Below, piece by piece: positions 39,852-60,214 of a stretch of 64,000 bases of DNA. Both the position numbers and the translations under genes were made by a program. Numbering within the stretch: position 1 is the stretch's first letter; every line of letters begins with the position of its first letter. A model generated the notes under the pieces. The model searched no databases. It was given only the letters and a program-made list of their open reading frames with translations, and had not been told where the DNA came from. Source of the DNA: Lachnospiraceae bacterium (GTDB lineage Bacteria > Bacillota > Clostridia > Lachnospirales > Lachnospiraceae); the NCBI GenBank assembly GCA_910574885.1, contig CAJTDD010000008.1, forward strand, positions 62,001-126,000, read 5' to 3'.

Positions 39852-39876
39852 AAATAGATAGAAAGGACTGTGCAGA

Positions 39877-41085: not shown

Positions 41086-41130
41086 TATGTTAGGCGGAAA
41101 AAGTTGGATTGTTGCTAAGGAATATAAAAA

Positions 41131-41162
41131 AATCGCAGAGTATGTTCCTCTGCGATTTTTTT
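41131..41162 (+). repeat. Inverted site A-left; also a bidirectional terminator
   Basis: The core is TCGCAGAG, centre TATGTTC, CTCTGCGA, with an A-rich left flank and T8 right flank. As DNA it is a palindromic-armed site with an asymmetric 7-bp centre. As RNA it is a 10-bp hairpin followed by U residues in either direction. It therefore terminates the sigma/DUF4179 transcript from the left and the minus-strand promoter from the right. Confidence 0.9.
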
Positions 41163-41177
41163 TAAAAACGCAAATTA

Positions 41178-41206
41178 ATTATAACTATCTAATGTAAATA
41201 AGTCAA
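41178..41206 (-). promoter_or_regulatory. Promoter inside invertible segment A, facing left
   Basis: On the minus strand: TTGACT (41206-41201), 17-nt spacer, TATAAT (41183-41178). Transcripts would start near 41171 and run within about 45 nt into the terminator hairpin of the left site. The same promoter at the same relative position occurs in segment B. Confidence 0.85.
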
Positions 41207-41332
41207 TATCTAATTTCATTTTGTAATATTTTGGCGCTAAATCCAGAACAATATTCAGTCTATTTAAAAATTTCTAATATATTTATCTCTATTTTTGTTG
41301 CTATACCCACTATTTTTAAACCGCAAATCAGC

Positions 41333-41364
41333 AAAAAAATCGCAGAGGAACATACTCTGCGATT
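41333..41364 (-). repeat. Inverted site A-right
   Basis: Exact reverse complement of 41131-41162 over 32 bp. It ends one base before GGGGAGAGG, the binding site of the NusG-like gene, so it has no T run on the gene side and would not terminate a transcript entering from the segment. Confidence 0.92.
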
Positions 41365-41373
41365 GGGGAGAGG

Positions 41374-41880
41374 ATGGTTATCTGGTATTTATTACCCTGT
41401 AAGGAACAGGAGGAACAAAGGACTTTAGATTCATGCAGAAACTACCTTTCAGAAACAGCTCTAAGGGATGCCTTCATCCTTACTTACGACAGGATGTGCC
41501 GGTATCAGGGAGCATGGCATCTAGAGAAAAAGTTATTATTTCCGGCATACGTAATATTGGAAAGTGAGAATGCATCTATTTTGAGAGATGAACTGACTCA
41601 ATATAAAGGAATCTTGGGCAAGGCGCAGGCCGTTCTGGAAATAAATCCAAAAGAAGAAAAGTTCCTGAGAGTCCTATGTGGGAAAAGGAATCATATAAGG
41701 ATGTCCAGGGGTGTGATCTGCAAAGGAGTTACACAAGTGACTGAAGGTCCGTTAAAGGGAATGGAAGCCCGGATTTGTAAAATCGACCGGCATAAGCGGC
41801 TGGCAAAATTACGGGTACAGGAGGGGCATGATAGTCGGTATATCCCGGCGGGACTGGAAATTGTGGAGAAAAGTATTTGA
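41374..41880 (+). CDS. NusG-family specialised antiterminator (module A)
   Basis: A 168-residue NusG paralog. The NGN domain starts WYLLPCKEQEEQRTLDSC and includes WHLEKKLLFPAYVILESE; the C-terminal KOW is GVTQVTEGPLKGMEARICKIDRHKRLAKL. Such proteins (LoaP, UpxY, RfaH types) ride on RNA polymerase and let it read through terminators in long polysaccharide operons. ATG 41374 directly follows GGGGAGAGG, which itself abuts the right inverted site. First gene of the long module A, transcribed rightward only if segment A is inverted or by read-through. Close relatives are at 59555-60067 and as a relic near 55079. Confidence 0.88.
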   Translation: MVIWYLLPCKEQEEQRTLDSCRNYLSETALRDAFILTYDRMCRYQGAWHLEKKLLFPAYVILESENASILRDELTQYKGILGKAQAVLEINPKEEKFLRVLCGKRNHIRMSRGVICKGVTQVTEGPLKGMEARICKIDRHKRLAKLRVQEGHDSRYIPAGLEIVEKSI

Positions 41881-41907: not shown

Positions 41908-42579
41908 ATGAACTATTTAGTTGTAGTTGCTCATCCGGATGATGAGGTTTTGGGGGCTGGAGCAACAATAAACAAATTTATAAAAAGCGGCCATAGAGTT
42001 GCTGTGGCTATTATGGTTGGGAAAGCTGACGCCCGGAAGAATCTATCAGCCACTTTAGCCGATGATGAGGCCAAGGCTATGTCTATCATGGGCGTTGAAA
42101 AAGTATTTCATGCAGATTTCCCCAATATAAAGATGAATACGGTTCCGCACTTGGAACTTGTACAGTTTATAGAATCATGTATTACCGATTGGCAAGCAGG
42201 GGCGATAATAACTCACCATCCTTCTGATACGAATATAGACCATCAGGAGACCAGCAAGGCTGTCAATGCTGCATGCCGACTGTTCCAGCGAACAGACGAT
42301 GTTCCCAAATTGAAAGAGATGCTTTATATGGAAGTACCAAGTTCTACCGAATGGAGTCTCAACACAGCGGAAAACCAATTCATGCCAAATACATTTGTTG
42401 AAATCGGAGAAGAGGGTGTAAAAGTGAAACTTGTGGCTCTTGCAGCTTACAAGGGCGTCATGAGACAATTTCCACATCCAAGATCAGAAAAGGCTATAGA
42501 AGGCTTAGCTGCATATCGTGGTGTACAGTCCGGTTGTTGTTATGCCGAGGCGTTTGAATGTGTATTACGGACAGAATAA
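41908..42579 (+). CDS. PIG-L family deacetylase
   Basis: A 223-residue LmbE/PIG-L metalloenzyme that removes an acetyl group from an N-acetylated sugar, or acts as a deacylase on a related substrate. The N-terminal zinc motif is VVVAHPDDEVLGAGATI and the second histidine motif is ITHHPSDTNIDHQETSKAV. In an exopolysaccharide operon it likely modifies a lipid-linked or nucleotide sugar. Twenty-seven bases after the antiterminator gene. Confidence 0.92.
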   Translation: MNYLVVVAHPDDEVLGAGATINKFIKSGHRVAVAIMVGKADARKNLSATLADDEAKAMSIMGVEKVFHADFPNIKMNTVPHLELVQFIESCITDWQAGAIITHHPSDTNIDHQETSKAVNAACRLFQRTDDVPKLKEMLYMEVPSSTEWSLNTAENQFMPNTFVEIGEEGVKVKLVALAAYKGVMRQFPHPRSEKAIEGLAAYRGVQSGCCYAEAFECVLRTE

Positions 42580-42597
42580 GATGATGGGAGAGCATGA

Positions 42598-43248
42598 ATG
42601 TATAAGCGTTATATAAAGCGGTTACTTGATATTGTATTGTCTCTGCTTGCAATTATTCTTTTGTTTCCTGTTTATCTTATCCTGGCAATTTGTGTACATA
42701 TTGGTATGGGAAGCCCAATTTTATTTTCACAGAGACGAATTGGAAAAGATGAAAAGGTATTTAATCTTTACAAATTCCGCTCAATGACAAATGCAAGGGA
42801 TGAGAACGGAAACTTATTATCGGAGAAAGATAGATTGACAAAGTTTGGGGTTGCTCTTAGATCTTCTTCTCTGGACGAGCTCCCAGAGCTGTTCTTAATC
42901 TTGAAAGGAGATATGTCTTTTGTTGGTCCCAGACCGTTGCCGACATACTATGGTCCATATTTTTTGGCTCAGGAAAGAATTCGACACAAAGTTAGGGGCG
43001 GTTTAATTCCTCCAGATAGTATCGGAGGAGAGACAACCTCAGATTGGGAAACGCAATTTAAATATGAAACATATTATGCAGAGCATGTTACGTTTCTTAT
43101 GGATGTAAAAGTGGTTTTGTGGACATTTAAAATCTTATTCAAGAGAGTCGAAACGAATTATGGAGCTGATGATCGTCCTCATCTGAATAAGTACAGAGCA
43201 TCAATGAACGTTCCTCAAAGTGAAATCGACCGGTGGAATAGTCTATAA
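42598..43248 (+). CDS. Priming sugar transferase (undecaprenyl-phosphate), module A
   Basis: A 216-residue bacterial sugar transferase of the PglC/WbaP type. An N-terminal membrane hairpin (IVLSLLAIILLFPVYLILAICV) is followed by PILFSQRRIGKDEKVFNLYKFRSM and SLDELPELFLILKGDMSFVGPRP. It moves a sugar phosphate onto undecaprenyl phosphate to start repeat-unit assembly. A second, different priming transferase exists at 62088, arguing for two separate polymers. Confidence 0.93.
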   Translation: MYKRYIKRLLDIVLSLLAIILLFPVYLILAICVHIGMGSPILFSQRRIGKDEKVFNLYKFRSMTNARDENGNLLSEKDRLTKFGVALRSSSLDELPELFLILKGDMSFVGPRPLPTYYGPYFLAQERIRHKVRGGLIPPDSIGGETTSDWETQFKYETYYAEHVTFLMDVKVVLWTFKILFKRVETNYGADDRPHLNKYRASMNVPQSEIDRWNSL

Positions 43249-43265
43249 GGGAGTTTATGATATAA

Positions 43266-44405
43266 ATGAGCGAATATATCGTTTTTGTGTGTAAAGATCA
43301 TTATAATCCGCTTGGGATTGTTCGTACCTTAGGCGAAGTAAGGATAAAACCAATAGCGGTGGTGGTGAAGAGTGATCCACAATTAGTAACGAAATCGAAA
43401 TATGTAAAAACCAAGCATGTGGTTGAAACACCAGAAGAAGGGTTGGAACTGATTCTCAAGTTGTATGCGAAAGATAAAAATGATAAATCTTTTATCTTAA
43501 CAGGAGATGATGTCACTGTACAAATTTTGGATCAAAATTATGATAAGTTAAAAGATTACTTCTACTTTTACAATGCAGGGGAAGCAGGACGTATTCGTCA
43601 TTTCATGAATAAGGATGTGCTGAACGATCTGGCAGTGAAGCATGGATTCAACATAACTAAGACTTGGAAAGTGAAACCTGGGGAATGCGAGATTCCGGAA
43701 GATATTGTTTATCCGGTCATGACTAAGGCAATAAACTCTTTCGGCAAGGAGTGGAAGAGCATAGTTTATATTTGTAATAATGAATACGAACTAAAAGCCG
43801 CTTACAAGAAAATAAAAAGTGAATGTATCCTCCTTCAGCAATATTTGGAGAAGACTGATGAATATGGATTTGAGGGTTTTAGTGTCAATCATGGTAAAGA
43901 TGTTTTTATAAGCATGCGAACAAACCAGGTTTATGAAATCCCGGATAAGTATTCTCCGTATTGGTATATTACCAATGTATATGATAAGGAGCTCATTAAG
44001 CAACTAAGTGGAATGATTGAGGAAATTGGTTTAGAAGGAATCTGGGAGTATGAATTCCTTGTTGGAAAGGATGGGAAGCTCTATTTCCTGGAACTCAATT
44101 TCAGAAATACTGTAATTGGTTGGGCTACTACGGTAGCTGGCATGCCGAATGCAACTCTGTGGACTGAGTCAATGAAAACAGGTCATATTGCGGATAACTG
44201 CTATAGGAAGATTCCTGATGGATTCACTGCAATGGCTGAGTGTTGGGATTACGATGAAAGAGTGAAAACAAGAATTATAAGCCGCAAAGAGTGGATGAGG
44301 CAGTATAAGAAGGTCAATGCAAAGCTATACAGAGGGCGAAATGATTTCAGACCGTTCTTTTCTTTTATGTGGTACAAGATCACACGAATGAAATTAGATC
44401 ATTGA
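43266..44405 (+). CDS. ATP-grasp carboxylate-amine ligase-like protein
   Basis: A 379-residue protein with an ATP-grasp fold (YPVMTKAINSFGKEWKSIVYIC, ILLQQYLEKTDEYGFEGFSV, WEYEFLVGKDGKLYFLELNFRNTVIG with metal-binding E and N). It probably couples an amino acid or other amine to a carboxyl group on a sugar or lipid-linked unit, as suspected for ATP-grasp genes in polysaccharide loci. Distinct from the ATP-grasp protein at 62736. Confidence 0.85.
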   Translation: MSEYIVFVCKDHYNPLGIVRTLGEVRIKPIAVVVKSDPQLVTKSKYVKTKHVVETPEEGLELILKLYAKDKNDKSFILTGDDVTVQILDQNYDKLKDYFYFYNAGEAGRIRHFMNKDVLNDLAVKHGFNITKTWKVKPGECEIPEDIVYPVMTKAINSFGKEWKSIVYICNNEYELKAAYKKIKSECILLQQYLEKTDEYGFEGFSVNHGKDVFISMRTNQVYEIPDKYSPYWYITNVYDKELIKQLSGMIEEIGLEGIWEYEFLVGKDGKLYFLELNFRNTVIGWATTVAGMPNATLWTESMKTGHIADNCYRKIPDGFTAMAECWDYDERVKTRIISRKEWMRQYKKVNAKLYRGRNDFRPFFSFMWYKITRMKLDH

Positions 44406-44492
44406 AGATAGAGGTAATGGAAGATAGAAGTGTATGGATTAGTGCAGCTGGTATCCTCGCATATTGTTGGATAAAAAAGGGAGAATAAATCC

Positions 44493-45350
44493 ATGAAGCT
44501 TTTAATAACAGGCGCAGGAAGTTATATAGGTACTAAGGTTGCTGATTATATTCAGGAACGTGAGCCTGAGTGGAAGATAGATCGGTTGGATGTGCAAACT
44601 GACAAATGGAAGAAGTGCGACTTCTCCTTTTACGATTCTGTCTTCCACGTGGCTGGGCTTGCACATCGGAAGATAACGCCAGATATCGAGCCTTTGTATT
44701 ACATGGTTAATCGGGATCTTGCTATTGAGATTGCTCAGACAGCAAAAGAGAGTGGAGTTAGTCATTTTATCTTCATGTCATCTATGAGTGTGTATAGCGA
44801 TGATGATACGTATGTGGATGTTCACACACCAACGAATCCCGATAATGCTTATGGGAAAAGCAAATTGCAGGCTGAAGATGGCATACAGAAGTTAGTGTCT
44901 GAAGGCTTCTTCGTATCCATTATCCGTCCACCAATGATTTATGGGAAAGGATGTAAGGGTAATTATAATTTACTAAGAAAGATAGCTTTGAAGTTTCCTG
45001 TGTTTCCAAAAGTAAACAACAAACGTTCCATGCTTTTCATTGGTAATTTTGCTGAGTTTATTCACCAGTTGATTTTGAGGAGAGAGCCGGGTGTGTTCTA
45101 TCCACAGAATGCGAAACTGGTCAATACCACGGAATGGGTGAAGTATATAGCCGAAGAGAATGGGAAAAAGGTTCATATGTCCTCGTTCCTCGGCTGGTGC
45201 ACAAAGATAGGAATGCATGTACCGGGGATTAAAAGATACTGTATCAAGGCATTTGGCGATAGCTACTATGACCTTGAGATGAGCGTATATCATGACATGA
45301 ATTATCAGGTTATTGGATTCAGAGAAAGTATTAAAAGAACGGAGCAATAG
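44493..45350 (+). CDS. NAD-dependent epimerase/dehydratase family protein
   Basis: A 285-residue short-chain dehydrogenase/epimerase. Nucleotide-binding GAGSYIGTKVADY at the N-terminus, catalytic Ser region FIFMSSMSVYSD and YGKSK (Tyr/Lys pair, about residue 121). Similar to UDP-glucose 4-epimerase-like enzymes and 4-keto reductases of capsule clusters. Exact sugar not determinable. Confidence 0.88.
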   Translation: MKLLITGAGSYIGTKVADYIQEREPEWKIDRLDVQTDKWKKCDFSFYDSVFHVAGLAHRKITPDIEPLYYMVNRDLAIEIAQTAKESGVSHFIFMSSMSVYSDDDTYVDVHTPTNPDNAYGKSKLQAEDGIQKLVSEGFFVSIIRPPMIYGKGCKGNYNLLRKIALKFPVFPKVNNKRSMLFIGNFAEFIHQLILRREPGVFYPQNAKLVNTTEWVKYIAEENGKKVHMSSFLGWCTKIGMHVPGIKRYCIKAFGDSYYDLEMSVYHDMNYQVIGFRESIKRTEQ

Positions 45351-45365
45351 AAGGAGAGTTCTTAG

Positions 45366-46262
45366 ATGGGACAAGAGTATTTTTCAATGGAAGAATTGGG
45401 GGAAGAAGGTCTTCGAAAGCTCCAGGTGAGATGTCTTGAAATATTGGTGTATTTCAAAAAGATATGTGATGAGAATAAGCTTACATTTTATCTTGCAGGC
45501 GGCACGGCAATCGGAGCGCTTCGCCACAAAGGTTTTATTCCTTGGGATGATGATATAGACGTCTTTATGCCGAGACCTGACTATGAAAAACTTACCAAAA
45601 TTTGGTCAGAAGTTGCAGACACATCAAAGTATGTTTTCATTAGAAGTAATCGTGAACATAACTATCATCATCATGCCGCCAGCATTGTGGATGTTAACAC
45701 CACATGGATAGAAGAACGGAATGTTAATAATGATGTCCCACAGGGAGTAATGATGGATGTCATTCCTCTCGATGGATGTCCAGATTCAAAAGTTAGGAGA
45801 TTCTTTCAGCTTTATAACGCCTTCAAATTTGCTGTTTTCAATGTCCAAAGACTGCCTGAAAATAAAAACAAGAAAGTCTACTATGCTACGAAGGTTGTGC
45901 TTGGAATATTCAGAAGCAAGAGATTAAGTGATGCTATATGGATTTCTGCTGAGAAGAGAATGACGCGATATGATTTTTATATGAATAAGAACATTACAGA
46001 GTTGATAGGCGAGGTTTACGGCATGCTTGAAAAGCATCCAGTGGAGGATTTTTCTACAACTGTGGATGTGGATTTTGAAGGATATAAAATGCCGTTGATG
46101 AAGGGCTATGATGCATATCTTAAATCTGTGTTCGGTGACTACATGCAGATGCCTCCAGTAGAAAAAAGGGTTTCTAAAACTCGTTTAATATACGGAAATT
46201 TTGAGGAGCCATTTAGTAAATTTAAAGGAGTATATTATCTAAAAGGAAATAACATAAAATGA
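45366..46262 (+). CDS. LicD-family phosphotransferase
   Basis: A 298-residue member of the LicD/fukutin-like nucleotidyl/phospho-transferase superfamily with the diagnostic FYLAGGTAIGALRHKGFIPWDDDIDVFMPRPDYE. LicD proteins transfer phosphocholine or another phospho-alcohol from a CDP-carrier to a glycan. The next gene encodes a cytidylyltransferase that could make that CDP donor. The stop overlaps the next start (ATGA). Confidence 0.92.
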   Translation: MGQEYFSMEELGEEGLRKLQVRCLEILVYFKKICDENKLTFYLAGGTAIGALRHKGFIPWDDDIDVFMPRPDYEKLTKIWSEVADTSKYVFIRSNREHNYHHHAASIVDVNTTWIEERNVNNDVPQGVMMDVIPLDGCPDSKVRRFFQLYNAFKFAVFNVQRLPENKNKKVYYATKVVLGIFRSKRLSDAIWISAEKRMTRYDFYMNKNITELIGEVYGMLEKHPVEDFSTTVDVDFEGYKMPLMKGYDAYLKSVFGDYMQMPPVEKRVSKTRLIYGNFEEPFSKFKGVYYLKGNNIK

Positions 46263-46978
46263 ACATAGCAATTATATTTGCTGGCGGTACCGGACAGAGG
46301 ATGAATACAAAACCAAAACCAAAACAGTTCCTCGAGTTGCATGGAAAACCGATAATCATCTACACGATAGAGTACTTTGAGCAGCATGAGCTGATTGATG
46401 GAATTGTCATCGTGTGTGTAGAGAAGTGGATTGATTATTGTCAAAAGTTGGTTGATAAGTTTCATATCGAAAAGGTTAAAGCAATTATCCCGGGCGGCTC
46501 AACGGGAATGCTTTCAAGGTTTGAGGGCGTTAAAAAGGCCAAGGAACTCTACCCGGATGATACGATTTGCCTAATGCATGACGGTGTCAGACCAATGATT
46601 GGACATGACATCATCACTGCTAACATTAAATCAGTCGAGAAGTTTGGGTCTGCTGTGACCGTGGCACCTGCAATCGAGACAATTGCTGTAAGAGGCTCTG
46701 ATAACAAAGTCGGTCAGATTATCGACCGTAGCAAGTGTCAGATGGCTAAGGCGCCGCAGTCATTTAGATTAGGCGAACTATTCAAAGTTCATCGTGAAGC
46801 GATTGATGCCGGTATGAATGATTGCATTGATACAGCATATTTGATGCAGTTGAACGGCTATGATGTTTATACAGTAGAAGGCTCTGCTGAGAATATAAAA
46901 ATCACGACACCAACGGACTTCTATACATTCAGGGCGCTGATGGATATCAGAGAGAATTCACAGATATTTGGAGTATGA
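46259..46978 (+). CDS. IspD/TarI-family cytidylyltransferase
   Basis: A 239-residue nucleotidyltransferase: IIFAGGTGQRMNTKPKPKQFLELHGKPI at the N-terminus, LMHDGVRPMIG, and PQSFRLGELFKVH. It resembles IspD and ribitol-phosphate cytidylyltransferases. Because it is translationally coupled to licD and to an epimerase, it more likely makes a CDP-alditol or similar donor for LicD than an isoprenoid precursor. Confidence 0.9.
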   Translation: MNIAIIFAGGTGQRMNTKPKPKQFLELHGKPIIIYTIEYFEQHELIDGIVIVCVEKWIDYCQKLVDKFHIEKVKAIIPGGSTGMLSRFEGVKKAKELYPDDTICLMHDGVRPMIGHDIITANIKSVEKFGSAVTVAPAIETIAVRGSDNKVGQIIDRSKCQMAKAPQSFRLGELFKVHREAIDAGMNDCIDTAYLMQLNGYDVYTVEGSAENIKITTPTDFYTFRALMDIRENSQIFGV

Positions 46979-46980
46979 TT

Positions 46981-48033
46981 ATGAATCGAGTTCAGATAGA
47001 GGATTGTCAGAATATAGGTAATCTTGATTTTATAGATTGGAATCAGTTCAAAGGCTCTACCATACTGATCACTGGATCCACGGGTCTCATTGGCTCGAAT
47101 CTTGTTAATGTGATTGCGTACAACAGTCAGAAAAAAGGGTTGGATATTAAGTTGATTCTACCTGTGAGAAACACAGGGGCAGCAATGGAGTTTTTTAACT
47201 GGACTGGTGCAGAGATCATACATTATGAACTGGGTAGCGAGCTGACGATTGACACATCAGTAGATTACATCATCAACCTTGCAAGCCCTACAAGCTCTAA
47301 GTTCTTCACAGAGAAGCCTGTGGATACTATGAAGACAAACATAGATGGTACACGCTCACTGTTGGACTGGGCTGTTAGTCATCCGGTGAAAAAGTTTGTA
47401 AGTTTATCTACGATGGAAGTTTATGGATTTCCAGAGAAGGGGCATAAGGTGAAGGAAAATGAACTCGGTGCATTTGAAACAATGAATGTTCGTAACAGCT
47501 ATCCTGTAGCGAAGATTGCGTGTGAATGCCTTTGTAACAGCTACTATGCACAGTATGACGTTCCAACTGTGATCATCCGTGCAACACAGACATTTGGGCC
47601 TGGCGTGAAATATGATGATGGTCGTGTGTTTGCCCAGTTTATGAGATGCGCTGTTGAGAAGAAGAATATCGTGCTGAAATCAGCCGGATTGACGGAGCGT
47701 AGCTACTTATACACAGCTGATGCGGTATCAGCGATTCTGGTAAGTCTAATGAAGGCTGAGCCAGGACAGGCTTACACTGTTGCAAATCCAGACACTTACT
47801 GTTCTATCAAAGGTATGGCTCAGATGATTGCTGACGATATCGCAGGCGGTGAGATAAGAGTTGTGTTTGATATAGAAAAGGATATCGAGAAGCTTGGATA
47901 TGCTGGTACGCTTTTTATGGATTTGAATGTTGAGAAGATGGAGTGTCTTGGGTGGAAACCAAAGACGTCGCTTAAGGAAATGTATATAAGGATGATAAAC
48001 TCCCATCAAATGGGTTATGCTGTAATGGGCTAA
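46981..48033 (+). CDS. NAD-dependent epimerase/dehydratase (coupled to the cytidylyltransferase)
   Basis: About 350 residues. Rossmann motif ILITGSTGLIGSNLVNVI, FVSLSTMEVYGFPEKG and a YPVAK catalytic pair, resembling UDP-glucuronate decarboxylase and dTDP-glucose dehydratase relatives. In similar loci this enzyme sits with IspD-like and LicD proteins, so a role in making the alcohol or sugar moiety of the CDP donor is likely. ATG 46981 has GGAG at seven bases; ATG 46975 overlaps the preceding stop but lies too close to the site. Confidence 0.87.
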   Translation: MNRVQIEDCQNIGNLDFIDWNQFKGSTILITGSTGLIGSNLVNVIAYNSQKKGLDIKLILPVRNTGAAMEFFNWTGAEIIHYELGSELTIDTSVDYIINLASPTSSKFFTEKPVDTMKTNIDGTRSLLDWAVSHPVKKFVSLSTMEVYGFPEKGHKVKENELGAFETMNVRNSYPVAKIACECLCNSYYAQYDVPTVIIRATQTFGPGVKYDDGRVFAQFMRCAVEKKNIVLKSAGLTERSYLYTADAVSAILVSLMKAEPGQAYTVANPDTYCSIKGMAQMIADDIAGGEIRVVFDIEKDIEKLGYAGTLFMDLNVEKMECLGWKPKTSLKEMYIRMINSHQMGYAVMG

Positions 48034-48111
48034 GGCGTGTTCTGTAGTGTGTCAGCCTTATAAAGGAAACTATATCAGAAAATATAAGAAAGAGAAAGTC
48101 CGATTATAAGA

Positions 48112-49014
48112 ATGGAAAAAGTATGTGTGTTAATGAGTACATATAACGGCGAGAAATTCATAAAAACACAAATTGAAAGCATCTTAAATCAAAAAGATGT
48201 AAAAGTGGACTTGTTGGTGCGAGACGATGGTTCCTCAGACAACACATGTGCTATATTGCAGAATTATAAGGCAGAGGGGCTTATAGAATGGTACAATGGC
48301 GAAAATTTGGGTTCTGCTAAAAGCTTTTGGGACTTGCTCTTAAAAGCGCCAAAATCGAAATATTATGCTTTTGCGGATCAAGATGACTATTGGCTGGAAG
48401 ACAAACTTTACAGGGCGATAAGTGTGATTAAATCAGACGGGGATATAGGGTCAAAACTGTACTTCTCCAAAAAGACTATAGTCAATGAGGATTTGGAAGG
48501 AATCGACGTACAGGATGAACCGGTACGTGGAGTAGGATTGGAGTACTCATTAATTAGAGGATTTGCAGCCGGTTGCACAATGTTGTTTAATGAAGAACTA
48601 TATAAAAAACTAATTGAGTATACTCCAAAGGTCATGACTATGCATGATTCCTGGATTTTAAAGGTAGCTGGTGCAATTGGAAAAGTCATATATGATAATG
48701 AATCAAGAATATTATATAGACAACATTCAAATAATGCGATAGGTAATCAAACAAGATACAAGGCTTTTGTGAGACATATTAGCAGTATCTCTAAGTTAAA
48801 AAATGATGATACTCGTATTATTATGGCAAAGCAGTTGGTTGATTATTATTCTGAAATGATGTCTGCCAAAGATGTGTATTTTACAAAACTTTTGTCTGAC
48901 GCTCGAAATTCATTTATTTCACGAATTAAGATGATACTCACGAATTATTATCAAACACAAATAAAATCTGATATATTGTCTTTCAAAATCCTAATATTAC
49001 TTGGATGGATTTAG
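48112..49014 (+). CDS. Glycosyltransferase family 2
   Basis: A 300-residue GT-A glycosyltransferase with KVCVLMSTYNGEKFIKTQIESIL, VRDDGSSDNTC and FADQDDYWLEDKLYRA (DxD-like metal site), most like rhamnosyl- and galactosyltransferases of capsule loci. Start of a strikingly AT-rich stretch (48112-51230) that differs from the flanking genes, suggesting a separately acquired block. Weak binding site. Confidence 0.92.
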   Translation: MEKVCVLMSTYNGEKFIKTQIESILNQKDVKVDLLVRDDGSSDNTCAILQNYKAEGLIEWYNGENLGSAKSFWDLLLKAPKSKYYAFADQDDYWLEDKLYRAISVIKSDGDIGSKLYFSKKTIVNEDLEGIDVQDEPVRGVGLEYSLIRGFAAGCTMLFNEELYKKLIEYTPKVMTMHDSWILKVAGAIGKVIYDNESRILYRQHSNNAIGNQTRYKAFVRHISSISKLKNDDTRIIMAKQLVDYYSEMMSAKDVYFTKLLSDARNSFISRIKMILTNYYQTQIKSDILSFKILILLGWI

Positions 49015-49045
49015 GAAAAGAAATTACGCTAGGTAGGGCTGTCGA

Positions 49046-50197
49046 ATGAGTGCTTTTCAAACTTACACGTTGTATATAGGAGTATTTTTACTTACAACTG
49101 CAATGCTTTTTCTATTTAAGCATACATTTAAATATAAGCTTAAAGCCGGATCAATAGATTTAAATTTTGTTTTTCGGCTCATTTTTATGATTATATCTCT
49201 TATGCCGCTAATACTAATGGCTACATATAGATATGATACCGGAACTGATTATTTTTCATTTGAGTCTACGTACAACTGGTGTATGAGAAATCTTGATTCA
49301 TTTAGTCAATTACAAAAGGCAGTATTAGGATTCAATGATGAGCCAGGTATGCTTATTCTGCTAAGGATGGGAGGAACGATATTCGGCTCTTTTCAGGGTT
49401 TTTTATTTCTAGCATCTATTTTAACAGTAGTTCCTGCCTTAATTGCATTTATTATTTATGATAATGAACATTTTGATTTTTGTTTTTTAATATACTTATT
49501 TACTTTGTATCTATCATCATACAACGGTATTCATCAGCATATAGCAGTTTCGTGGAGCCTGCTTGCCGTTGTGCTTGCTTACAAAGAAAAATATTTAAAA
49601 GCAGTTTTATTGATACTATTTGTAATGTTATTTCACACTACTGCAGTGTTTACCTTTGTATTCTTGATATTAATTCTATGGTCAAAGAGGAATATCGAAC
49701 TAAAATTACATATAGTTTTGCTGATATCAATTATATCCATTATTGGAATGCAGATAATTTTATCGTTATTAAGCAAGATGCCGTTGCTTGCAAGATATGA
49801 ATATGCATTTAATGAGCATCACGTATTTTCGGTTAATTTTATTATCATGCACATGGCATTTAAAATTCCGTTGATTGTTGTGATGTTGTTACGATACAAA
49901 AAGCTTATAAAGAATGATAGAAGGACTTTTGCATTACTGGCATACACATTGTTTGATGCGGTATTTGTTTTTTCGGCATTTTACATGCGATGGTCTATGC
50001 GAATGCAGTATTATACATTATCTGTGTCACCACTATTACTAATCAATATCTTTGAATCTTATGAAGAGGAAAATAATAGCAATCGAGTATTTATTAAGTC
50101 GGCTTTAACCATCACTTATATTGTCAGGTTTTTTGTTTTGTTTGGTATTTACAGTTATGATTCGGTGATTCCATATACTTTCTTGGGAGTGGATTGA
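49046..50197 (+). CDS. EpsG-family polysaccharide polymerase (Wzy-like)
   Basis: A 383-residue membrane protein with about ten hydrophobic segments and the EpsG hallmarks YRYDTGTDYFSFESTYN (RxGTDY motif, about residue 57) and YNGIHQHIAVSWSLLAV (RQ-like GIxQ motif). EpsG proteins act as repeat-unit polymerases. Very AT-rich, like its neighbours. Confidence 0.9.
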   Translation: MSAFQTYTLYIGVFLLTTAMLFLFKHTFKYKLKAGSIDLNFVFRLIFMIISLMPLILMATYRYDTGTDYFSFESTYNWCMRNLDSFSQLQKAVLGFNDEPGMLILLRMGGTIFGSFQGFLFLASILTVVPALIAFIIYDNEHFDFCFLIYLFTLYLSSYNGIHQHIAVSWSLLAVVLAYKEKYLKAVLLILFVMLFHTTAVFTFVFLILILWSKRNIELKLHIVLLISIISIIGMQIILSLLSKMPLLARYEYAFNEHHVFSVNFIIMHMAFKIPLIVVMLLRYKKLIKNDRRTFALLAYTLFDAVFVFSAFYMRWSMRMQYYTLSVSPLLLINIFESYEEENNSNRVFIKSALTITYIVRFFVLFGIYSYDSVIPYTFLGVD

Positions 50198-50322
50198 ATC
50201 TGTTCTCGAGCCTAAGGTAAGGGTGATAGAACTAGATTGTATATCTCAAGGAAACAGAACAAATCCTCATATTTTTATTTGGGGTTAAGGGATTGAAAGT
50301 AATCAAAAGGAAGAGGTAACTT

Positions 50323-51234
50323 ATGGAGGAGCATTTAGTAAGCGTCGTTATTCCTTCTTATAACAGATGTGATAGAATAATGAGAGCTGTTCAAAGCGTA
50401 TTATCACAAACATACTTAAATTTGGAAGTGATTATTGTTGACGATGGATCAAATGATAATACAGACGAATTAGTTAATTCGATTGATGACGATCGTGTAA
50501 AATATATCAAATTACATTCTAACGGGGGAGCTTGTCATGCTAGAAATGTTGGCATAAGTGAATCCAAAGGAGATTATATAGCATTCCAAGATAGTGATGA
50601 CTTTTGGCATCCGGATAAACTTGAAAAGCAGGTAAAAACTCTGATAAAAACAGGCGCTGATGTTCTTGGATGTAGTTATGAGCAATATTTAGAAGACGGA
50701 AGAGTTTTTGTTAAGACTGTACCGAATGACATTGAAAGCGGATTTTGTAAGGTTGATCAGGTGGCTGGAAATGCTTTGTTTGGTACACCTACGATTATAG
50801 CAAAGGCTGACATCATTAAGGCAAACTTGTTTGATGAGAGCTTGCCAAGATTTCAAGATTTTGAATTAATACTACGATTGATACAAAAAAATAGAATCTA
50901 TTTTTTAAATGATTCTTTAGTGGATGCATATGTGCAAAACAATTCTATCACTCAAAACTACGCTAAGTTGATACAAGCAGAGGAAATAATATTATCGAAA
51001 CATGCTGAAGTGATTGAAAAATATAGTTCCCAAAAAGCTTTGCATTTACGACGGTTAATTAGAGCAAAGACAATGGAATCTGTTTCCTGCAAAAATGAAT
51101 GCAAATTACTTTTTCAAACAGATAGGCATCTTAAAAGTCTAACAGTTTGCGCTCTTCATAAAATTGGATTGTTGTCATTCTACTATAATTATCTCGATAA
51201 ATATAATAATAACATGAGTGGAGGAAGAAAATAA
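50323..51234 (+). CDS. Glycosyltransferase family 2
   Basis: A 303-residue GT-A enzyme: VSVVIPSYNRCDRIMRAVQSVLSQTY, IIVDDGSNDNTDELV, GGACHARNVGISESKGDYIAFQDSDDFWHPDKLEKQ. ATG 50323 follows AGGAAGAGG. The stop overlaps the next gene's start by one base. Part of the AT-rich block. Confidence 0.93.
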   Translation: MEEHLVSVVIPSYNRCDRIMRAVQSVLSQTYLNLEVIIVDDGSNDNTDELVNSIDDDRVKYIKLHSNGGACHARNVGISESKGDYIAFQDSDDFWHPDKLEKQVKTLIKTGADVLGCSYEQYLEDGRVFVKTVPNDIESGFCKVDQVAGNALFGTPTIIAKADIIKANLFDESLPRFQDFELILRLIQKNRIYFLNDSLVDAYVQNNSITQNYAKLIQAEEIILSKHAEVIEKYSSQKALHLRRLIRAKTMESVSCKNECKLLFQTDRHLKSLTVCALHKIGLLSFYYNYLDKYNNNMSGGRK

Positions 51235-52556
51235 TGTCTTTATTTGAAAAAATCGTATCCAAAGAAGAAACACTGGCACTGGTTGGTCTAGGATACGTAG
51301 GTATGCCCATCGCCCATGCTTTTGCCAAAAAAGGCATCCATGTGATCGGCTTCGATCTAAATAAAGCAAAAATCGAGCTGTATAAACAAGGCATCGACCC
51401 GACGATGGAAGTCGGAGACGAGGAGATAAAGAATACAAAGATTCACTTCACCGCAGATGAAACTGAGTTGAAGAAAGCTAAGTTCATCATCATTGCGGTG
51501 CCTACCCCTGTGAACACAGACCATACCCCTGATTTGACTCCTGTAATCGGCGCTTCGGAGATCGTTGGCCGAAACCTGACTACAGGCTGTATTGTGGTTT
51601 ACGAATCCACGGTTTATCCTGGCTGCACTGAAGACGTGTGTATTCCGATTCTTGAAAAACAGAGCGGTTTAAAGTGCGGCGCTGATTTCAAGGTTGGATA
51701 CAGTCCGGAGCGTATCAATCCCGGGGATAAGGTTCATCGACTTGAAAACATCCACAAGATTGTTTCCGGCATTGATGCGGAGAGTTTGCAAGAAATCAAG
51801 GCTGTATATGATCTTGTTATTGAGGTAGGAACTCATCCTGTATCCAATCTCCGGACGGCAGAGGGTGTGAAAGTTGTGGAGAACAGCCAACGGGATATAA
51901 ATATTGCTTTTATGAATGAGTTGGCGATGGTGTTTGACCGTATGAACATCGACACAAATGAAGTCGTTGATGGAATGAATACCAAGTGGAATGCATTAGG
52001 ATTCCGTCCAGGTCTGGTAGGAGGCCATTGTATAGGTGTCGATCCTTACTACTTCACATATGAGGCTGAAAAGCTCGGCTACCACAGTCAAATCATTCTT
52101 AATGGCCGCATTGTTAACGACAGCATGGGAGCTTTTGTTGCTGACAAAGCCGTTAAGAAAATGATCGATGCCGGACAAGCTCCCAAAAAGAGTAAAGTGG
52201 TAATCCTCGGCCTAACCTTCAAGGAAAACTGCCCGGATATAAGAAACAGTAAAGTCGATGATATTATTAAGCAGCTTAACAAGTACGGAATAGATCCTGT
52301 TGTGGTTGACCCGTGGGCAAGCGATGGGGATGCCATGCATGAGTATGGTGTGCGGCTCACTCATCTTGATGGGGTTTCGGACGCTGACTGCGTGATTGTT
52401 GCAGTCGCCCATGATGAATTTAAAGCATTAGGACTCGACAAGGTTAAAAGTTTCTTCAAAGATTGTCCGGATGGAGAGAAAGTTGTCATTGATGTAAAAG
52501 GAATATATCCGATTGATGAATTGAAAGCATCTGGAATGCAGTGGTGGAGACTGTAA
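51234..52556 (+). CDS. Nucleotide sugar dehydrogenase (UDP-GlcNAc/GalNAc dehydrogenase type)
   Basis: A 440-residue NAD-dependent 6-dehydrogenase of the WbpO/WbpA/TviB group: LALVGLGYVGMPIAHAFAKKG, VGYSPERINPGDKVH, VVENSQRDINIAFMNELA, FRPGLVGGHCIGVDPYY (catalytic Cys) and KVVILGLTFKENCPDIRNSK. It oxidises a UDP-N-acetylhexosamine to the uronic acid. Base composition is closer to the core genome than the AT-rich genes before it. Confidence 0.93.
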   Translation: MSLFEKIVSKEETLALVGLGYVGMPIAHAFAKKGIHVIGFDLNKAKIELYKQGIDPTMEVGDEEIKNTKIHFTADETELKKAKFIIIAVPTPVNTDHTPDLTPVIGASEIVGRNLTTGCIVVYESTVYPGCTEDVCIPILEKQSGLKCGADFKVGYSPERINPGDKVHRLENIHKIVSGIDAESLQEIKAVYDLVIEVGTHPVSNLRTAEGVKVVENSQRDINIAFMNELAMVFDRMNIDTNEVVDGMNTKWNALGFRPGLVGGHCIGVDPYYFTYEAEKLGYHSQIILNGRIVNDSMGAFVADKAVKKMIDAGQAPKKSKVVILGLTFKENCPDIRNSKVDDIIKQLNKYGIDPVVVDPWASDGDAMHEYGVRLTHLDGVSDADCVIVAVAHDEFKALGLDKVKSFFKDCPDGEKVVIDVKGIYPIDELKASGMQWWRL

Positions 52557-52659
52557 TCCAGCGGACAGATACAACGATGAATTTGCCAAGTATGTGAAAG
52601 TGATTAGATTCAATCATAATGAAAAATACATTCAACAATAGCAAGAGAGGAGTATGAAT

Positions 52660-53553
52660 ATGACCAAACCAGACACGATAATTGGATATGTGGTCTTACA
52701 CTATTTTACATACGATTCTACCGTACAAACGATTCAAAGCATCATTGACCATGATGAAAGTGCGGTGATAGTTCTGGTGGATAATTGTAGCCCAAACGGA
52801 TCTGGAGAAAGTTTAAGAAAGCGGTTCGCTAATCAGATTAATATTGAAGTGGTTCTCTTAGAAGAAAACCTTGGCTTTGCGAAAGGGAACAATGCAGGAT
52901 ATAAAACTTTAAAAGAGAAATACAATGTTGACTATATCTGCATTCTAAATAACGATGTTCTTATCCGCGATTGCGATATGAAACAAAAATTATCCAATGC
53001 ATATCTCCTGTATGGTTTCGGAATACTGGGGCCTCGGATTATTCTTGCAGATGGCAGTGAAAACATATTTATTAAAAAATTTCAGCCAATCGAGTATTAT
53101 GAAAATTTGCTGGAGCAGACACAAGGATTGTTAGAGCGGGTAAAGAGCAGGTCAGAGTTATCCTTGTATCTTGGTGATAAAAAGAGAAAATTTAAGCAGG
53201 TTATCTCCCGCAAGATTAAGAAAGATAATCCCGATACAAATATTGATCTTGATGCTTTGCTCCATGGATGTTGTATATTTTTCTCGCCGCAGTTCATAAG
53301 TAAATTTGATGATGCTTTCTACCCTGGAACATTTTTATATGGAGAAGAAGAACTACTCTATTTGAAATGCCAAAGAAACGGGCTTAAATCGGTTTATTAC
53401 CCGTTCATAACCATCCAGCATCTTGAAGATGTAGCAACGAATTCTTCAGTGCATCAGGTTAAGGAACGGCTGGTTAGAAAACTTACAAATTCGATAGCAT
53501 CTTTGAAGATCATAATTGAAACATATAAAGATCCAAGTGCTTTGGTGGAATAG
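52660..53553 (+). CDS. Glycosyltransferase family 2
   Basis: About 297 residues. GYVVLHYFTYDSTVQTIQSI, VLVDNCSPNGSGES, NLGFAKGNNAGY and ICILNNDVLIRD mark a GT2 enzyme of the rhamnosyltransferase-like group; LHGCCIFFSPQF and YGEEELLYLK follow. ATG 52660 has GAGAGGAGT at a suitable distance; ATG 52654 also in frame. The 97 nt before it contain no gene, only a short protein-like remnant. Confidence 0.92.
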   Translation: MTKPDTIIGYVVLHYFTYDSTVQTIQSIIDHDESAVIVLVDNCSPNGSGESLRKRFANQINIEVVLLEENLGFAKGNNAGYKTLKEKYNVDYICILNNDVLIRDCDMKQKLSNAYLLYGFGILGPRIILADGSENIFIKKFQPIEYYENLLEQTQGLLERVKSRSELSLYLGDKKRKFKQVISRKIKKDNPDTNIDLDALLHGCCIFFSPQFISKFDDAFYPGTFLYGEEELLYLKCQRNGLKSVYYPFITIQHLEDVATNSSVHQVKERLVRKLTNSIASLKIIIETYKDPSALVE

Positions 53554-53581
53554 AAGCACGATCGATATAGAGGAGGTTAGA

Positions 53582-55027
53582 ATGGGCGTCAAAAGAAAAT
53601 CTCTAGCTGCAAATGCGTTACTCAACGGCATTAAGCAGTGTTGCGTTATACTATTTCCATTAATAACTTTTCCCTATGTGTCACGGGTTTTAGGACCGAC
53701 TAATTACGGGAAGGTCAGCTTTGCGTTGTCAATCATATCATACATTACATTAATCGCGGGGCTTGGAATCAATAATTACGCAATAAGAGAGGGTGCGAGA
53801 GTACGAGAGGATAAAAACCGTTTTTCAAAAATAGCCAGTGAGATCTTCTCTATCAATATATTGTCAACTATCGTAGCCATGCTTATCCTCATTGGCCTGA
53901 TAGGATTATGGGCTAAACCTCAGGAGTATAGAGAACTCCTCCTGATACTTAGCTTTTCAGTCATATTCACTACGATTGGAGCAGACTGGATTAATTCTGT
54001 ATACGAAGATTATCTTTATATTACGCTCAGGTATATTGTTTGCAATCTCGTTTCACTGGTCTGTATTTTCATGTTTGTCCGAAATAAGAACGACTATATC
54101 GTATATTCCATTATAAGTGTTATTCCGGTCATTATGGCTAACACAATCAATTGTTATCATATACGGAAAACACAGGGGATCAAGAGAAGATTTGTAGTCA
54201 ATTGCGATTTGTGTATCCATATAAAGCCGATATTTCTGATTTTCGCAACGGCCGTGGCGCAGGTCATATATATTAATTCGGACATAACGATCATTGGAGT
54301 TTTTTGCAGCGATAAACTTGTTGGAAATTATTCTGTGGCCGCAAAAATATATACCCTCATCAAACAACTTATAAATGCTCTAATGGTCGTTGCAATTCCA
54401 AGAGTCTCAAATATGATGGAAAATGCAGAGCTGCGTTTCGTGAAAGATAAGCTAACCCAAATTTTTGATGTTGTATTTATATTACTTGTTCCTATGGCCA
54501 CTGGACTGTTCATGCTTAGACGGGAAGTGGTACTAATTATTTCTGGGACAGAATATCAGGAGGCGATTGCGCCTTTAGGCGTTCTCGCTATTTCATTGGT
54601 TTTTGCTTCCATTGCATGTTTTTATATAAATGTAATTATGTTGCCCTATAAAATGGAGAAGAAGATTCTGATTTACACAGTAATCAGTGCGGTAGTTAAT
54701 GTTATTTTGAATATTATTCTGATTCCGATTATAGGTATTACCGCCGCTGCCATTACAACACTTTTCTCCGAAATCATTATGTTTGGGTGTGGAGCTGCCT
54801 ACACACGGGATTTTGTTAGTTACTCTAAAAAGCCTATCCTATCCGGATTATTAAATGGTGGCTTGGTATTCGTGGTCTGCTTGATTATCAGAAAGTGCAT
54901 GAGTCATCCGTCGGCGATATTAATTTGCTCCATTGTAGTAAGTGGGATGGGTTTCTTTGCCGTATGCTTTGGGTTCTACGGGAAAGATATTATTTTGACG
55001 CTTAAAACGAGAAAACAGGGAAGATGA
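53582..55027 (+). CDS. Oligosaccharide flippase, Wzx type
   Basis: A 481-residue MATE/MOP-fold membrane protein with about 12-14 helices. It starts LAANALLNGIKQCCVILFPLITFPYVSRVLGPTNYGKVSF, the hallmark of Wzx/RfbX-like flippases. It moves undecaprenyl-linked repeat units across the membrane for the polymerase. ATG 53582 follows AGGAGG. Its stop lies 25 bases before a third copy of the recombination-like site. Confidence 0.94.
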   Translation: MGVKRKSLAANALLNGIKQCCVILFPLITFPYVSRVLGPTNYGKVSFALSIISYITLIAGLGINNYAIREGARVREDKNRFSKIASEIFSINILSTIVAMLILIGLIGLWAKPQEYRELLLILSFSVIFTTIGADWINSVYEDYLYITLRYIVCNLVSLVCIFMFVRNKNDYIVYSIISVIPVIMANTINCYHIRKTQGIKRRFVVNCDLCIHIKPIFLIFATAVAQVIYINSDITIIGVFCSDKLVGNYSVAAKIYTLIKQLINALMVVAIPRVSNMMENAELRFVKDKLTQIFDVVFILLVPMATGLFMLRREVVLIISGTEYQEAIAPLGVLAISLVFASIACFYINVIMLPYKMEKKILIYTVISAVVNVILNIILIPIIGITAAAITTLFSEIIMFGCGAAYTRDFVSYSKKPILSGLLNGGLVFVVCLIIRKCMSHPSAILICSIVVSGMGFFAVCFGFYGKDIILTLKTRKQGR

Positions 55028-55051
55028 ATGATATATCAGGCAGAAAGAAAA

Positions 55052-55074
55052 ATCGCAGAGTAGAACATTCTACG
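55052..55074 (+). repeat. Third inverted-site copy (relic, site C)
   Basis: TCGCAGAG, centre TAGAACA, TTCTACGA matches the right-hand sites of segments A and B (same inner arm, diverged gene-side arm) and is followed by AAGAGGGG and a NusG-like frame, as in B. No inverted partner or promoter core is present: it directly follows the wzx stop. Confidence 0.8.
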
Positions 55075-55078
55075 AAAG

Positions 55079-55280: not shown

Positions 55281-55284
55281 GGCT

Positions 55285-59274: not shown

Positions 59275-59295
59275 ATTTATATAATCCACAAAAAA

Positions 59296-59318
59296 TCGCA
59301 GAATAAGATACTCTGCGA
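59296..59318 (+). repeat. Inverted site B-left; also a terminator hairpin
   Basis: TCGCAGAA, centre TAAGATA, CTCTGCGA, flanked by AAAAAA on the left and TTTTTC on the right. It ends the capF transcript and blocks the leftward promoter. Confidence 0.85.
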
Positions 59319-59340
59319 TTTTTCTTTAAACAGCGTATCT

Positions 59341-59369
59341 ATTATATCTATCTAAATTTGATTAGTCAA
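59341..59369 (-). promoter_or_regulatory. Promoter inside invertible segment B, facing left
   Basis: On the minus strand: TTGACT (59369-59364), 17-nt spacer ending TAGATAGA, TATAAT (59346-59341). The spacer end and both hexamers match the segment A promoter, and it lies at the same side of the core. Confidence 0.85.
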
Positions 59370-59523
59370 TACTTTATTTGTTTTTGTAAAATTTTGTAAA
59401 ATTTTACTCTAAATTTACATTCATATAACGAATAAAATTCTTTTAATTTCTAATTAAATTCAATATTATCTGATATATATTCAAATAATATCACAAATTT
59501 CCACAAAACAATCAACCATATTT

Positions 59524-59546
59524 TCGCAGAGTATCTTACTCCACGA
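59524..59546 (-). repeat. Inverted site B-right
   Basis: TCGCAGAG, centre TATCTTA, CTCCACGA. Its reverse complement matches B-left at 20 of 23 positions, with an identical 7-bp centre. It is followed by AAGAAGGGG and the NusG-like frame, without a T run. Confidence 0.85.
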
Positions 59547-59572
59547 AAGAAGGGGTTGTTATCTGGTATTTA

Positions 59573-60067
59573 TTGACCTGTCATGAGCAGGAAGAACAGA
59601 GAATAATGGAATCCTGTAATAAGCGCTTGTCACGGAAAGCGCTTAGAAGTTCTTTTCTATTAACATACGATAGAATGCGGCGTTATGAAGGGAAGTGGCA
59701 TCTTGAGAGAAGGCTTTTGTTCCCGGCGTGCGTATTGCTGGAAAGTGAAAATGAAGAACGTCTGTTAAAGGAACTGAAAGACTTTAGAAAAATATCGGAG
59801 TCCGGAAGGTGTACTGTAAGGATAAATCCGGAAGAAGAGGAGTTCTTGAAGTCACTGTATGGGAAAGCTTGTCATCTGAAAATGTCCAGAGGAATTCTTT
59901 TCAAAGGAGCCGCTCGGATCACAGAAGGTCCGCTGAAAGGAATGGAGAATCGGATCTGTAAGGTTGACCGGCACAAACGGCTGGCGCATATCCGGACTGT
60001 GATAGGAAGTGGCGGGGAATTAAGTTACATTCAAGTAGGATTGGAAATAACGGAGAAATATAGGTAG
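59573..60067 (+). CDS. NusG-family specialised antiterminator (module B), start codon uncertain
   Basis: Closely related to the 41374 protein: WHLERRLLFPACVLLESENEE in the NGN domain and RITEGPLKGMENRICKVDRHKRLAHIR in the KOW. Homology extends upstream through VVIWYLLTC to 59555, right behind AAGAAGGGG, but the ATG found in module A is GTT here and no ATG, GTG or TTG occurs in frame until TTG 59573, which would remove the first NGN strand. The upstream frame is open only to 59489. Either a rare non-AUG start is used or the gene is newly inactivated. LoaP follows 147 nt later. Confidence 0.72.
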   Translation: MTCHEQEEQRIMESCNKRLSRKALRSSFLLTYDRMRRYEGKWHLERRLLFPACVLLESENEERLLKELKDFRKISESGRCTVRINPEEEEFLKSLYGKACHLKMSRGILFKGAARITEGPLKGMENRICKVDRHKRLAHIRTVIGSGGELSYIQVGLEITEKYR

Positions 60068-60214
60068 TACAAAGGATATCAGGAATGCCCCTTGAAGCTT
60101 TGGCACTTGGGTTCAGGAATGATAGACATAGAGGTAATAACTGTGGCTGTATAAGTATGGGCATGGATGGCGAAGCCATGCATATTGGGCGGAAAAATAG
60201 CAGGGAGAACGTGT

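What the first reader, a model, noticed from the sequence alone, without database searches (positions are those of the whole stretch)
41131..41364. Predicted phase-variable promoter inversion A, in the OFF state, heading an exopolysaccharide module
Two perfect 32-bp inverted copies of one site flank a 170-bp AT-rich core whose only strong promoter (TTGACT-17-TATAAT, minus strand 41206-41178) faces away from the EPS genes. In this orientation the promoter runs within about 45 nt into the left site, whose hairpin plus U run acts as a terminator. The right site abuts the Shine-Dalgarno of the NusG-like gene and has no U run, so an inverted promoter would read straight into the module. The layout (invertible promoter plus NusG paralog) parallels the Bacteroides capsule switches with UpxY proteins, but in a Clostridia background.
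Basis: partly seen in the sequence, partly recalled or inferred. Interest (0 to 1): 0.93.

Follow-up and report, generated by a model that had tools for sequence, protein, structure and literature searches.

The report
Flipping promoter switch for capsule genes
In this gut bacterium a 234-base stretch holding a predicted promoter lies between two mirror-image copies of one site just ahead of a row of predicted surface-sugar genes; related switches carry the matching stretch facing the other way, so it likely flips to turn those genes on and off.

Summary
Window 41131-41162 and 41333-41364 form a perfect 32-bp inverted repeat around a 170-bp core (76% A+T). Its only strong promoter-like site (11 of 12) faces away from a LoaP/NusG-like gene and a polysaccharide module, into a hairpin with a U run.

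It is one of eight complete switches in this genome. The sites share arms around a 7-nt spacer: in 30 pairs from three genomes, partner spacers differ at 0 of 210 bases, arms at 122 of 600. That is the anatomy of tyrosine-recombinase sites. A second copy here (contig C32) faces ON. Homologous switch-LoaP units of IMSAGC_019 and Sporofaciens musculi align with flanks on one strand and core on the other.

A 324-aa tyrosine recombinase beside rpsL is the likely trans-acting invertase; a 59% relative sits directly beside such a switch in one genome and one gene away in another.

Inversion at this locus itself was not observed: no reads were available. Verdict: a real multi-locus promoter-inversion system for polysaccharide loci in Lachnospiraceae, working like the Bacteroides capsule switches but built from other parts.

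The parts
41131..41162 (+). Distal recombination site (27-nt dyad AATCGCAGAG-TATGTTC-CTCTGCGATT plus T run), left arm of the inverted repeat
   Evidence: Perfect inverted partner at 41333-41364
41163..41332 (.). Predicted invertible core, 170 nt, 76% A+T
   Evidence: Lies between the arms; homologous cores found in the opposite orientation
41178..41206 (-). Predicted promoter TTGACT-17-TATAAT, facing away from the module (OFF)
   Evidence: 11 of 12 matches; same module 21-26 nt from a site in all 30 switches of three genomes
41126..41162 (-). Predicted intrinsic terminator formed by the distal site; hairpin plus U run also on the plus strand
   Evidence: folds
41333..41364 (+). Proximal recombination site, right arm; no U run towards the gene
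41365..41373 (+). Shine-Dalgarno-like GGGGAGAGG directly after the proximal site
   Evidence: Read
41374..41880 (+). LoaP-like NusG paralogue, first gene of the module
   Evidence: NCBIfam NF033641 111.6 bits, E 4e-32, below its cut-off of 125; profile of 10 relatives matches PDB 8f5g, a NusG-type protein, E 4e-16
41908..55027 (+). Predicted polysaccharide module: PIG-L deacetylase, initiating sugar transferase, LicD, IspD-like and epimerase genes, glycosyltransferases, UDP-sugar dehydrogenase; end of the operon not determined
   Evidence: Pfam and NCBIfam matches
59294..59548 (.). Second switch of the same kind (sites 59294-59320 and 59522-59548), promoter 11 of 12 on the minus strand, OFF
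59573..60067 (+). LoaP-like gene behind the second switch (listed start TTG; the conserved frame is open from 59555)
   Evidence: NF033641 97.2 bits; alignment
55051..55077 (.). Lone site of a broken switch in front of a LoaP fragment (51-aa match at 55145-55294)

Best explanation
Window 41131-41364 is likely an invertible promoter: two mirror-image sites flank a predicted promoter that here faces away from a LoaP-like gene and predicted polysaccharide genes, and a tyrosine recombinase encoded elsewhere in the genome would flip it to turn them on. In the OFF state the promoter would make a transcript of about 45 nt that ends at the distal site, whose hairpin and U run would act as a terminator; the same hairpin would stop read-through from the upstream gene. 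After inversion the promoter would read through the proximal site, which has no U run, into the Shine-Dalgarno and the LoaP-like gene, and the LoaP-like protein would help RNA polymerase through the long operon. Sites of different loci share arms, so one recombinase could serve them all, while the 7-nt spacers mostly differ between loci, which should confine exchange to the two sites of a pair. The likeliest enzyme is the 324-aa recombinase beside rpsL. Shown: the anatomy, the family of switches, the matched spacers, both orientations among paralogues and homologues. Inferred: inversion at this locus, the enzyme, promoter activity, termination and antitermination.
For: Perfect inverted repeat, promoter and terminator anatomy. 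Eight complete pairs in this genome, 0 matches for the reversed control pattern. In 30 pairs of three genomes partner spacers are identical in 30 of 30, arms differ at 122 of 600 bases; spacers of different pairs of one genome agree in 12 of 276 comparisons; 0 of 100000 permutations reach 30, the best reaches 14. Opposite orientations: C32 of this genome is ON, its core matches the closest paralogue, window 59294-59548, only after reversal (149 of 191, z 19.2; same orientation z 0.2); IMSAGC_019 and S. musculi switch-LoaP units align at 77.6% over 549 bp on one strand and at 73.5% over 257 bp of core on the other. At a recombinase cassette with the same kind of sites, G257 and G260 share the outer flank (25 of 30) but the inner flank fits only when reversed (29 of 31 against 11 of 31). 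T residues in the 9 nt after the site: distal 5.1, proximal 1.1, p 3e-8, n 49. Recombinase: 324 aa, alone upstream of rpsL-rpsG here and in S. musculi (94%), with R151, H267, R270, H293 and Y303 invariant in 11 sequences (role of these residues recalled); 56%-or-better relatives in 11 of 17 genomes with a switch-type LoaP locus and 0 of 5 without; a 59% relative directly beside a switch in L167. Five contigs end 0-7 nt after a site, as a graph with both orientations would.
Against: No inverted read or second strain of this species at this locus. Orientation is lopsided: 43 of 49 score OFF, and the 99.2%-identical MAG locus L144 has the same orientation as S. musculi. The IMSAGC_019 and S. musculi units have different downstream genes and align no further than LoaP, so they are homologues, not proven orthologues. 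Hairpin strength does not differ between distal and proximal sites (p 0.20). Six of 17 switch-bearing genomes lack the 56% recombinase: five are MAGs or incomplete (IMSAGC_019 is 62% complete and lacks the rpsL region), but Drancourtella has only a 43% relative, which sits beside its switch. G012 has a switch and no such enzyme, G201 the enzyme and no LoaP at E<=1e-20. Spacers are not unique: C26 and C32 share one. In L162 another gene lies between recombinase and switch. No UNCG hairpin, the known LoaP loading element, was found behind most switches (5 of 49, weak).
Confidence: 0.86

Rival explanations
1. The switch is real, but its enzyme is a cassette recombinase (contig C14 or C4 of this genome), which lies between its own inverted sites of similar type, and not the protein beside rpsL.
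For: The C14 gene (395 aa) is flanked by TTTCGTAGAATATCAAATTCTACGAAA and its inverted partner, the same arm type as the switches; C4 is flanked by a variant. Drancourtella has a 43% enzyme directly beside its LoaP switch.
Against: S. musculi has 11 complete switches but no C14-like gene above 43%; its C4-like cassette has a different site arm (CAGATTA), whereas the rpsL-side enzyme is 94% conserved at the same place. The enzyme directly beside a switch in L167 is of the rpsL-side type.
Confidence: 0.2
2. A fixed relic: the region once inverted but no longer does, and the module is permanently OFF or is driven from elsewhere.
For: No inverted form at this locus was seen; most switches score OFF; four half-switches in this genome show that such loci decay.
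Against: Both arms are still perfect over 32 bp with identical spacers; the LoaP-like frame and the module are open; paralogue C32 is ON; spacers stay matched while arms drift.
Confidence: 0.08
3. A small transposable element of MITE type whose ends are the inverted repeats.
For: About 230-bp A+T-rich element with inverted ends, many copies per genome; G256 has such a promoter piece at a contig end without a LoaP gene nearby.
Against: The copies stand ahead of LoaP genes at a short distance: 37 of 46 LoaP loci found by homology have one. A MITE does not explain pair-specific spacers or cores reversed between fixed flanks. Target-site duplications were not looked for.
Confidence: 0.03
4. Two ordinary bidirectional terminators that happen to flank a promoter.
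For: Both arms form hairpins, the left one with U runs on both strands.
Against: Terminator loops need no matched 7-nt spacer, yet 30 of 30 pairs match in inverted register, and reversed cores exist.
Confidence: 0.02

Closest known systems
Bacteroides fragilis capsule promoters with UpxY antiterminators and the global invertase Mpi (recalled; passages on UpxY near invertons and the Mpi reference in PMC11892184)
   Same: Many polysaccharide loci in one genome, each with an invertible promoter ahead of a NusG paralogue; one enzyme proposed to act in trans.
   Different: Lachnospiraceae; LoaP-like, no UpxY match in NCBIfam at E<=0.001; sites and candidate enzyme of tyrosine type (Mpi is a serine recombinase, recalled); site doubles as terminator; spacers mostly specific to the locus.
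LoaP antiterminators (Bacillus velezensis; passages of PMC12691694)
   Same: NusG paralogue encoded with long biosynthetic operons rich in intrinsic terminators.
   Different: The window protein scores below the NCBIfam cut-off (111.6 against 125); no UNCG hairpin found behind most switches; the gene sits behind an invertible promoter.
Eggerthella lenta capsule inversions of megabase size that move loci relative to loaP (preprint PMC13174815, passages)
   Same: Site-specific inversion, LoaP and capsule loci together; enzyme suspected to act in trans.
   Different: There the inverted piece is about 2 Mb and flanked by a 16-bp repeat of another sequence; here it is a 207-241-bp promoter piece (start-to-start distance in the 30 pairs).
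Clostridioides difficile promoter switches with RecV (passages of PMC9286219)
   Same: Short inverted repeats around a promoter in Clostridia; one recombinase serves more than one switch (flg, cmr).
   Different: Not polysaccharide operons headed by a NusG paralogue in the passages seen; repeats there 19 bp and imperfect for the 174-bp pdcB switch; sequences were not compared here.
Salmonella Hin segment (recalled)
   Same: The cassettes found here carry a recombinase gene and an outward promoter inside one invertible segment.
   Different: Hin is a serine recombinase; these are tyrosine recombinases; the LoaP switches themselves hold no gene.

Membership tests
Invertible promoter (inverton) | Inverted repeats flanking a promoter | tested here: met
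Invertible promoter (inverton) | Both orientations found among homologous loci | tested here: met
   C32 against window 59294-59548, IMSAGC_019 against S. musculi, cassette G257 against G260
Invertible promoter (inverton) | Both orientations at this very locus | not testable with these tools
   No reads or second strain of the species
Invertible promoter (inverton) | Recombinase-dependent switching of expression | not testable with these tools
   Needs experiment
Tyrosine-recombinase core site | Half sites around a 6-8-nt spacer identical in both partners | tested here: met
   7-nt spacer identical in 30 of 30 pairs; the rule itself is recalled
LoaP (NF033641) | Score above the curated cut-off | tested here: not met
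   111.6 and 97.2 bits against 125, so called LoaP-like
LoaP (NF033641) | UNCG-type RNA hairpin in the leader of target operons | tested here: not met
   Stem of 5 bp or more in the 1.5 kb behind the proximal site in 5 of 49 loci, no shuffle control
Bacteroides UpxY/Mpi system | UpxY-family antiterminator | tested here: not met
   Only the LoaP model matches at E<=0.001 in NCBIfam
Bacteroides UpxY/Mpi system | Serine invertase Mpi acts on the sites | not tested
   Sites and neighbouring genes point to a tyrosine recombinase; no search for an Mpi relative was made

The most novel reading that the evidence does not exclude
Lachnospiraceae have their own multi-locus capsule phase-variation machine: one tyrosine recombinase parked beside rpsL flips eight or more LoaP-headed polysaccharide promoters in trans, each kept apart from the others by a short locus-specific spacer that works like a barcode on a shared site, and each using the recombination site itself as the terminator that makes OFF tight. 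It is a Gram-positive counterpart, built from different parts, of the Bacteroides Mpi-UpxY system.
Probability: 0.6. Interest if true: 0.87.

Novelty: new variant of a known kind. Interest (0 to 1): 0.77.

Why it matters
Capsule switching by promoter inversion is the hallmark of Bacteroides. A parallel system with other parts in Lachnospiraceae would mean that two dominant gut groups reached the same solution: a NusG paralogue, an invertible promoter and a global invertase. It names testable loci in named strains (S. musculi WCA-9-b2, Claveliimonas bilis c-25), bears on phage resistance and host interaction in this family, and offers a natural set of spacer-barcoded sites for one enzyme.

Tried and rejected
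Led nowhere: a same-species strain comparison (the MAG behind L144 holds one switch pair, in the orientation of S. musculi); a UNCG hairpin for LoaP; a viral source (one contig of the viral collection has the exact site pattern); Goodson 2017 (not held). Papers, nine searches of the open-licence library: (invertible promoter + LoaP) 0 papers; (LoaP + antiterminat + polysaccharide) 14; 15 listed; 10; (LoaP + phase vari) only the E. lenta preprint; badly framed and useless; 15 of 20 listed; (Sporofaciens) 10 of 35 listed; 4. By titles and the passages read I saw no LoaP-linked promoter inversion in Firmicutes; subscription journals are mostly missing, so absence from print is not shown.

Rejected: MITE, plain terminators, fixed relic (see rivals). 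My first candidate enzyme, the C14 cassette recombinase, was demoted when S. musculi turned out to have 11 switches and only distant relatives of it. 'The distal hairpin is stronger' was tested and not supported; only the T run differs. No structure was predicted.

Rows set aside: lone sites without partner (three in S. musculi, four here) are not in the 30 pairs; the finder required at most one spacer mismatch, and by eye I saw no switch-sized pair ahead of a LoaP-like gene that this excluded. Six of the 49 orientations are weak or tied (L040, L100, L167, L169, L170, L180). L144 is nearly a copy of the S. musculi locus. For one search I gave one locus per genome, 22 of the 46 loci.

Full report
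Observation. The perfect inverted repeat is there: 41131-41162 and 41333-41364, 32 nt, 170 nt between, core 76% A+T. Each arm is also a dyad, AATCGCAGAG-TATGTTC-CTCTGCGATT, a pattern never met in 100 shuffles. The promoter-like site at 41206-41178 on the minus strand (11 of 12) is the only strong one in 40800-41700; the other hit is 9 of 12, also minus. The left site is a hairpin with U run on both strands; the right one has no U run towards the gene.

A family of switches. The window's genome (5.35 Mb, 126 contigs) has 23 places within 3 mismatches of the second pattern and none of the reversed control (15 with the first pattern). Sixteen form eight complete pairs ahead of LoaP-like genes: three on C8, one each on C9, C19, C20, C26, C32. 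Four are half-switches (window 55051, C13:34909, C13:81838, C20:52999). Two flank the C14 recombinase and one belongs to the C4 recombinase, whose partner site is more divergent.

Site logic. In 30 pairs (8 here, 11 in G250, 11 in G253) the partner spacers are identical in 30 of 30, with 0 of 210 base mismatches; the arms have 122 of 600. Spacers of different pairs in one genome agree in 12 of 276 comparisons; of 100000 permutations none reached 30. Matched spacers with drifting arms are what strand exchange by a tyrosine recombinase requires (recalled). Spacers are not all unique: C26 and C32 share one.

Orientation. G250 is Sporofaciens musculi WCA-9-b2, G253 Lachnospiraceae bacterium IMSAGC_019 (equal contig lengths). 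A scan of named genomes gave 46 LoaP loci: 37 have a site pair upstream, 3 lie on contigs that are cut there but hold one site, 6 have none. Over 49 pairs (30 plus 19 from other genomes) the promoter score gives 43 OFF and 6 ON; without six weak or tied calls, 39 OFF and 4 ON (C32 here, IMSAGC_019 contig 135, MGBC000269, C. bilis). A cut contig (L140), LoaP 69% identical to the window's, is ON; its core part aligns with the reversed window core (z 10.5 against 0.6).

Direct comparison. The C32 core (ON) matches its closest paralogue, window 59294-59548 (OFF), only after reversal: 149 of 191, z 19.2, against z 0.2. IMSAGC_019 and S. musculi units: 77.6% over 549 bp on the LoaP side on one strand, 73.5% over 257 bp of core on the other; their downstream genes differ, so they are homologous units rather than proven orthologous loci. 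At one recombinase cassette G257 and G260 share the outer flank (25 of 30) while the inner flank fits the reversed end (29 of 31) and not the forward one (11 of 31). Five contigs end 0, 1, 1, 4 and 7 nt after a site and one named contig starts inside one (L163), as an assembly graph with both orientations would give; other causes are possible.

Terminator. T residues in the 9 nt after the distal site average 5.1, after the proximal site 1.1 (n 49, Wilcoxon p 3e-8); hairpin energies do not differ (p 0.20). The -10 box lies 21-26 nt from the site in all 30 pairs of the three genomes.

What is controlled. The first gene is LoaP-like (PDB match). Of 49 switches, 47 have homologues of the window's polysaccharide proteins within 9 kb downstream on the same strand, and 33 a second LoaP-like gene behind the first (no control loci).

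The enzyme. A 324-aa tyrosine recombinase stands alone directly upstream of rpsL-rpsG here and, 94% identical, in S. musculi; in G256 a 73% relative lies next to what matches the leader and first bases of rpsL at a contig end. Its best PDB matches are an 'Int protein' (6en0, E 4e-14) and Xer-type enzymes. Relatives of 56% or better: 11 of 17 genomes with a switch-type LoaP locus, 0 of 5 without, though one of the five (Blautia sp. MSJ-9) has a 144-aa fragment at 52%. In 250 genomes of the family it occurs in 4 and the LoaP subfamily in 4 (E<=1e-50, a threshold set after seeing the data; 22 at E<=1e-20); 3 overlap, p 6e-6, or 2 of 3 and 3, p 3e-4, without the window's own genome, from which both queries came. 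All four subfamily genomes have a site pair ahead of LoaP (in G126 judged by eye); of the 25 more distant LoaP loci fetched one (L248) has a related pair. Beside switches: a 59% relative directly adjacent in L167; a 58% relative in L162 with one J-domain-like ORF (by eye) in between; a 43% one adjacent in L180.

Limits. Promoter activity, termination, antitermination, the enzyme and inversion at this locus are inferred. The system works like the Bacteroides capsule switches but fails the tested membership feature (UpxY family). The open-licence library showed no description of it.

Noticed in passing
L041:9346-10780 (G000 contig C14); also L073, L075, L076, L081, L084, L086, L088, L104, L106: Cassettes in which sites of the same kind, 1.35-1.7 kb apart, enclose a tyrosine recombinase gene and a promoter (11 or 12 of 12) on the opposite strand pointing out of the segment: 10 of 12 cassettes examined. 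A Hin-like layout with a tyrosine enzyme; G257 and G260 show it in opposite orientations.
   Followed up: partly
window 55051-55300; G000 C13:34909, C13:81838, C20:52999: Half-switches: one site left, next to LoaP fragments, a LoaP gene without partner site, or promoter remnants.
   Followed up: partly
window 60167-60778: A second, divergent LoaP-like gene (about 30% identical) directly behind the first; 33 of 49 switch loci have one. Role unknown; possibly an accessory or competing antiterminator.
   Followed up: partly
window 59555-59575; L033, L036, L039: Several LoaP-like genes have no ATG, GTG or TTG ahead of the conserved IWYL start; an ATT or GTT codon stands there. Possible unusual starts.
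   Followed up: no
window 39345-41085: ECF sigma factor and a DUF4179 protein (perhaps an anti-sigma partner) directly upstream of the switch, separated from it by the terminator-like distal site.
   Followed up: no
G256 contigs C15 (L105) and C76 (L110): Two contig ends with mirror-image spacers and the conserved promoter tail, but no LoaP gene seen nearby: a switch at another kind of gene, or a relic.
   Followed up: partly
G201 contig C16 (L218): A 57% relative of the rpsL-side recombinase in a genome without a LoaP at E<=1e-20; its target is unknown.
   Followed up: no
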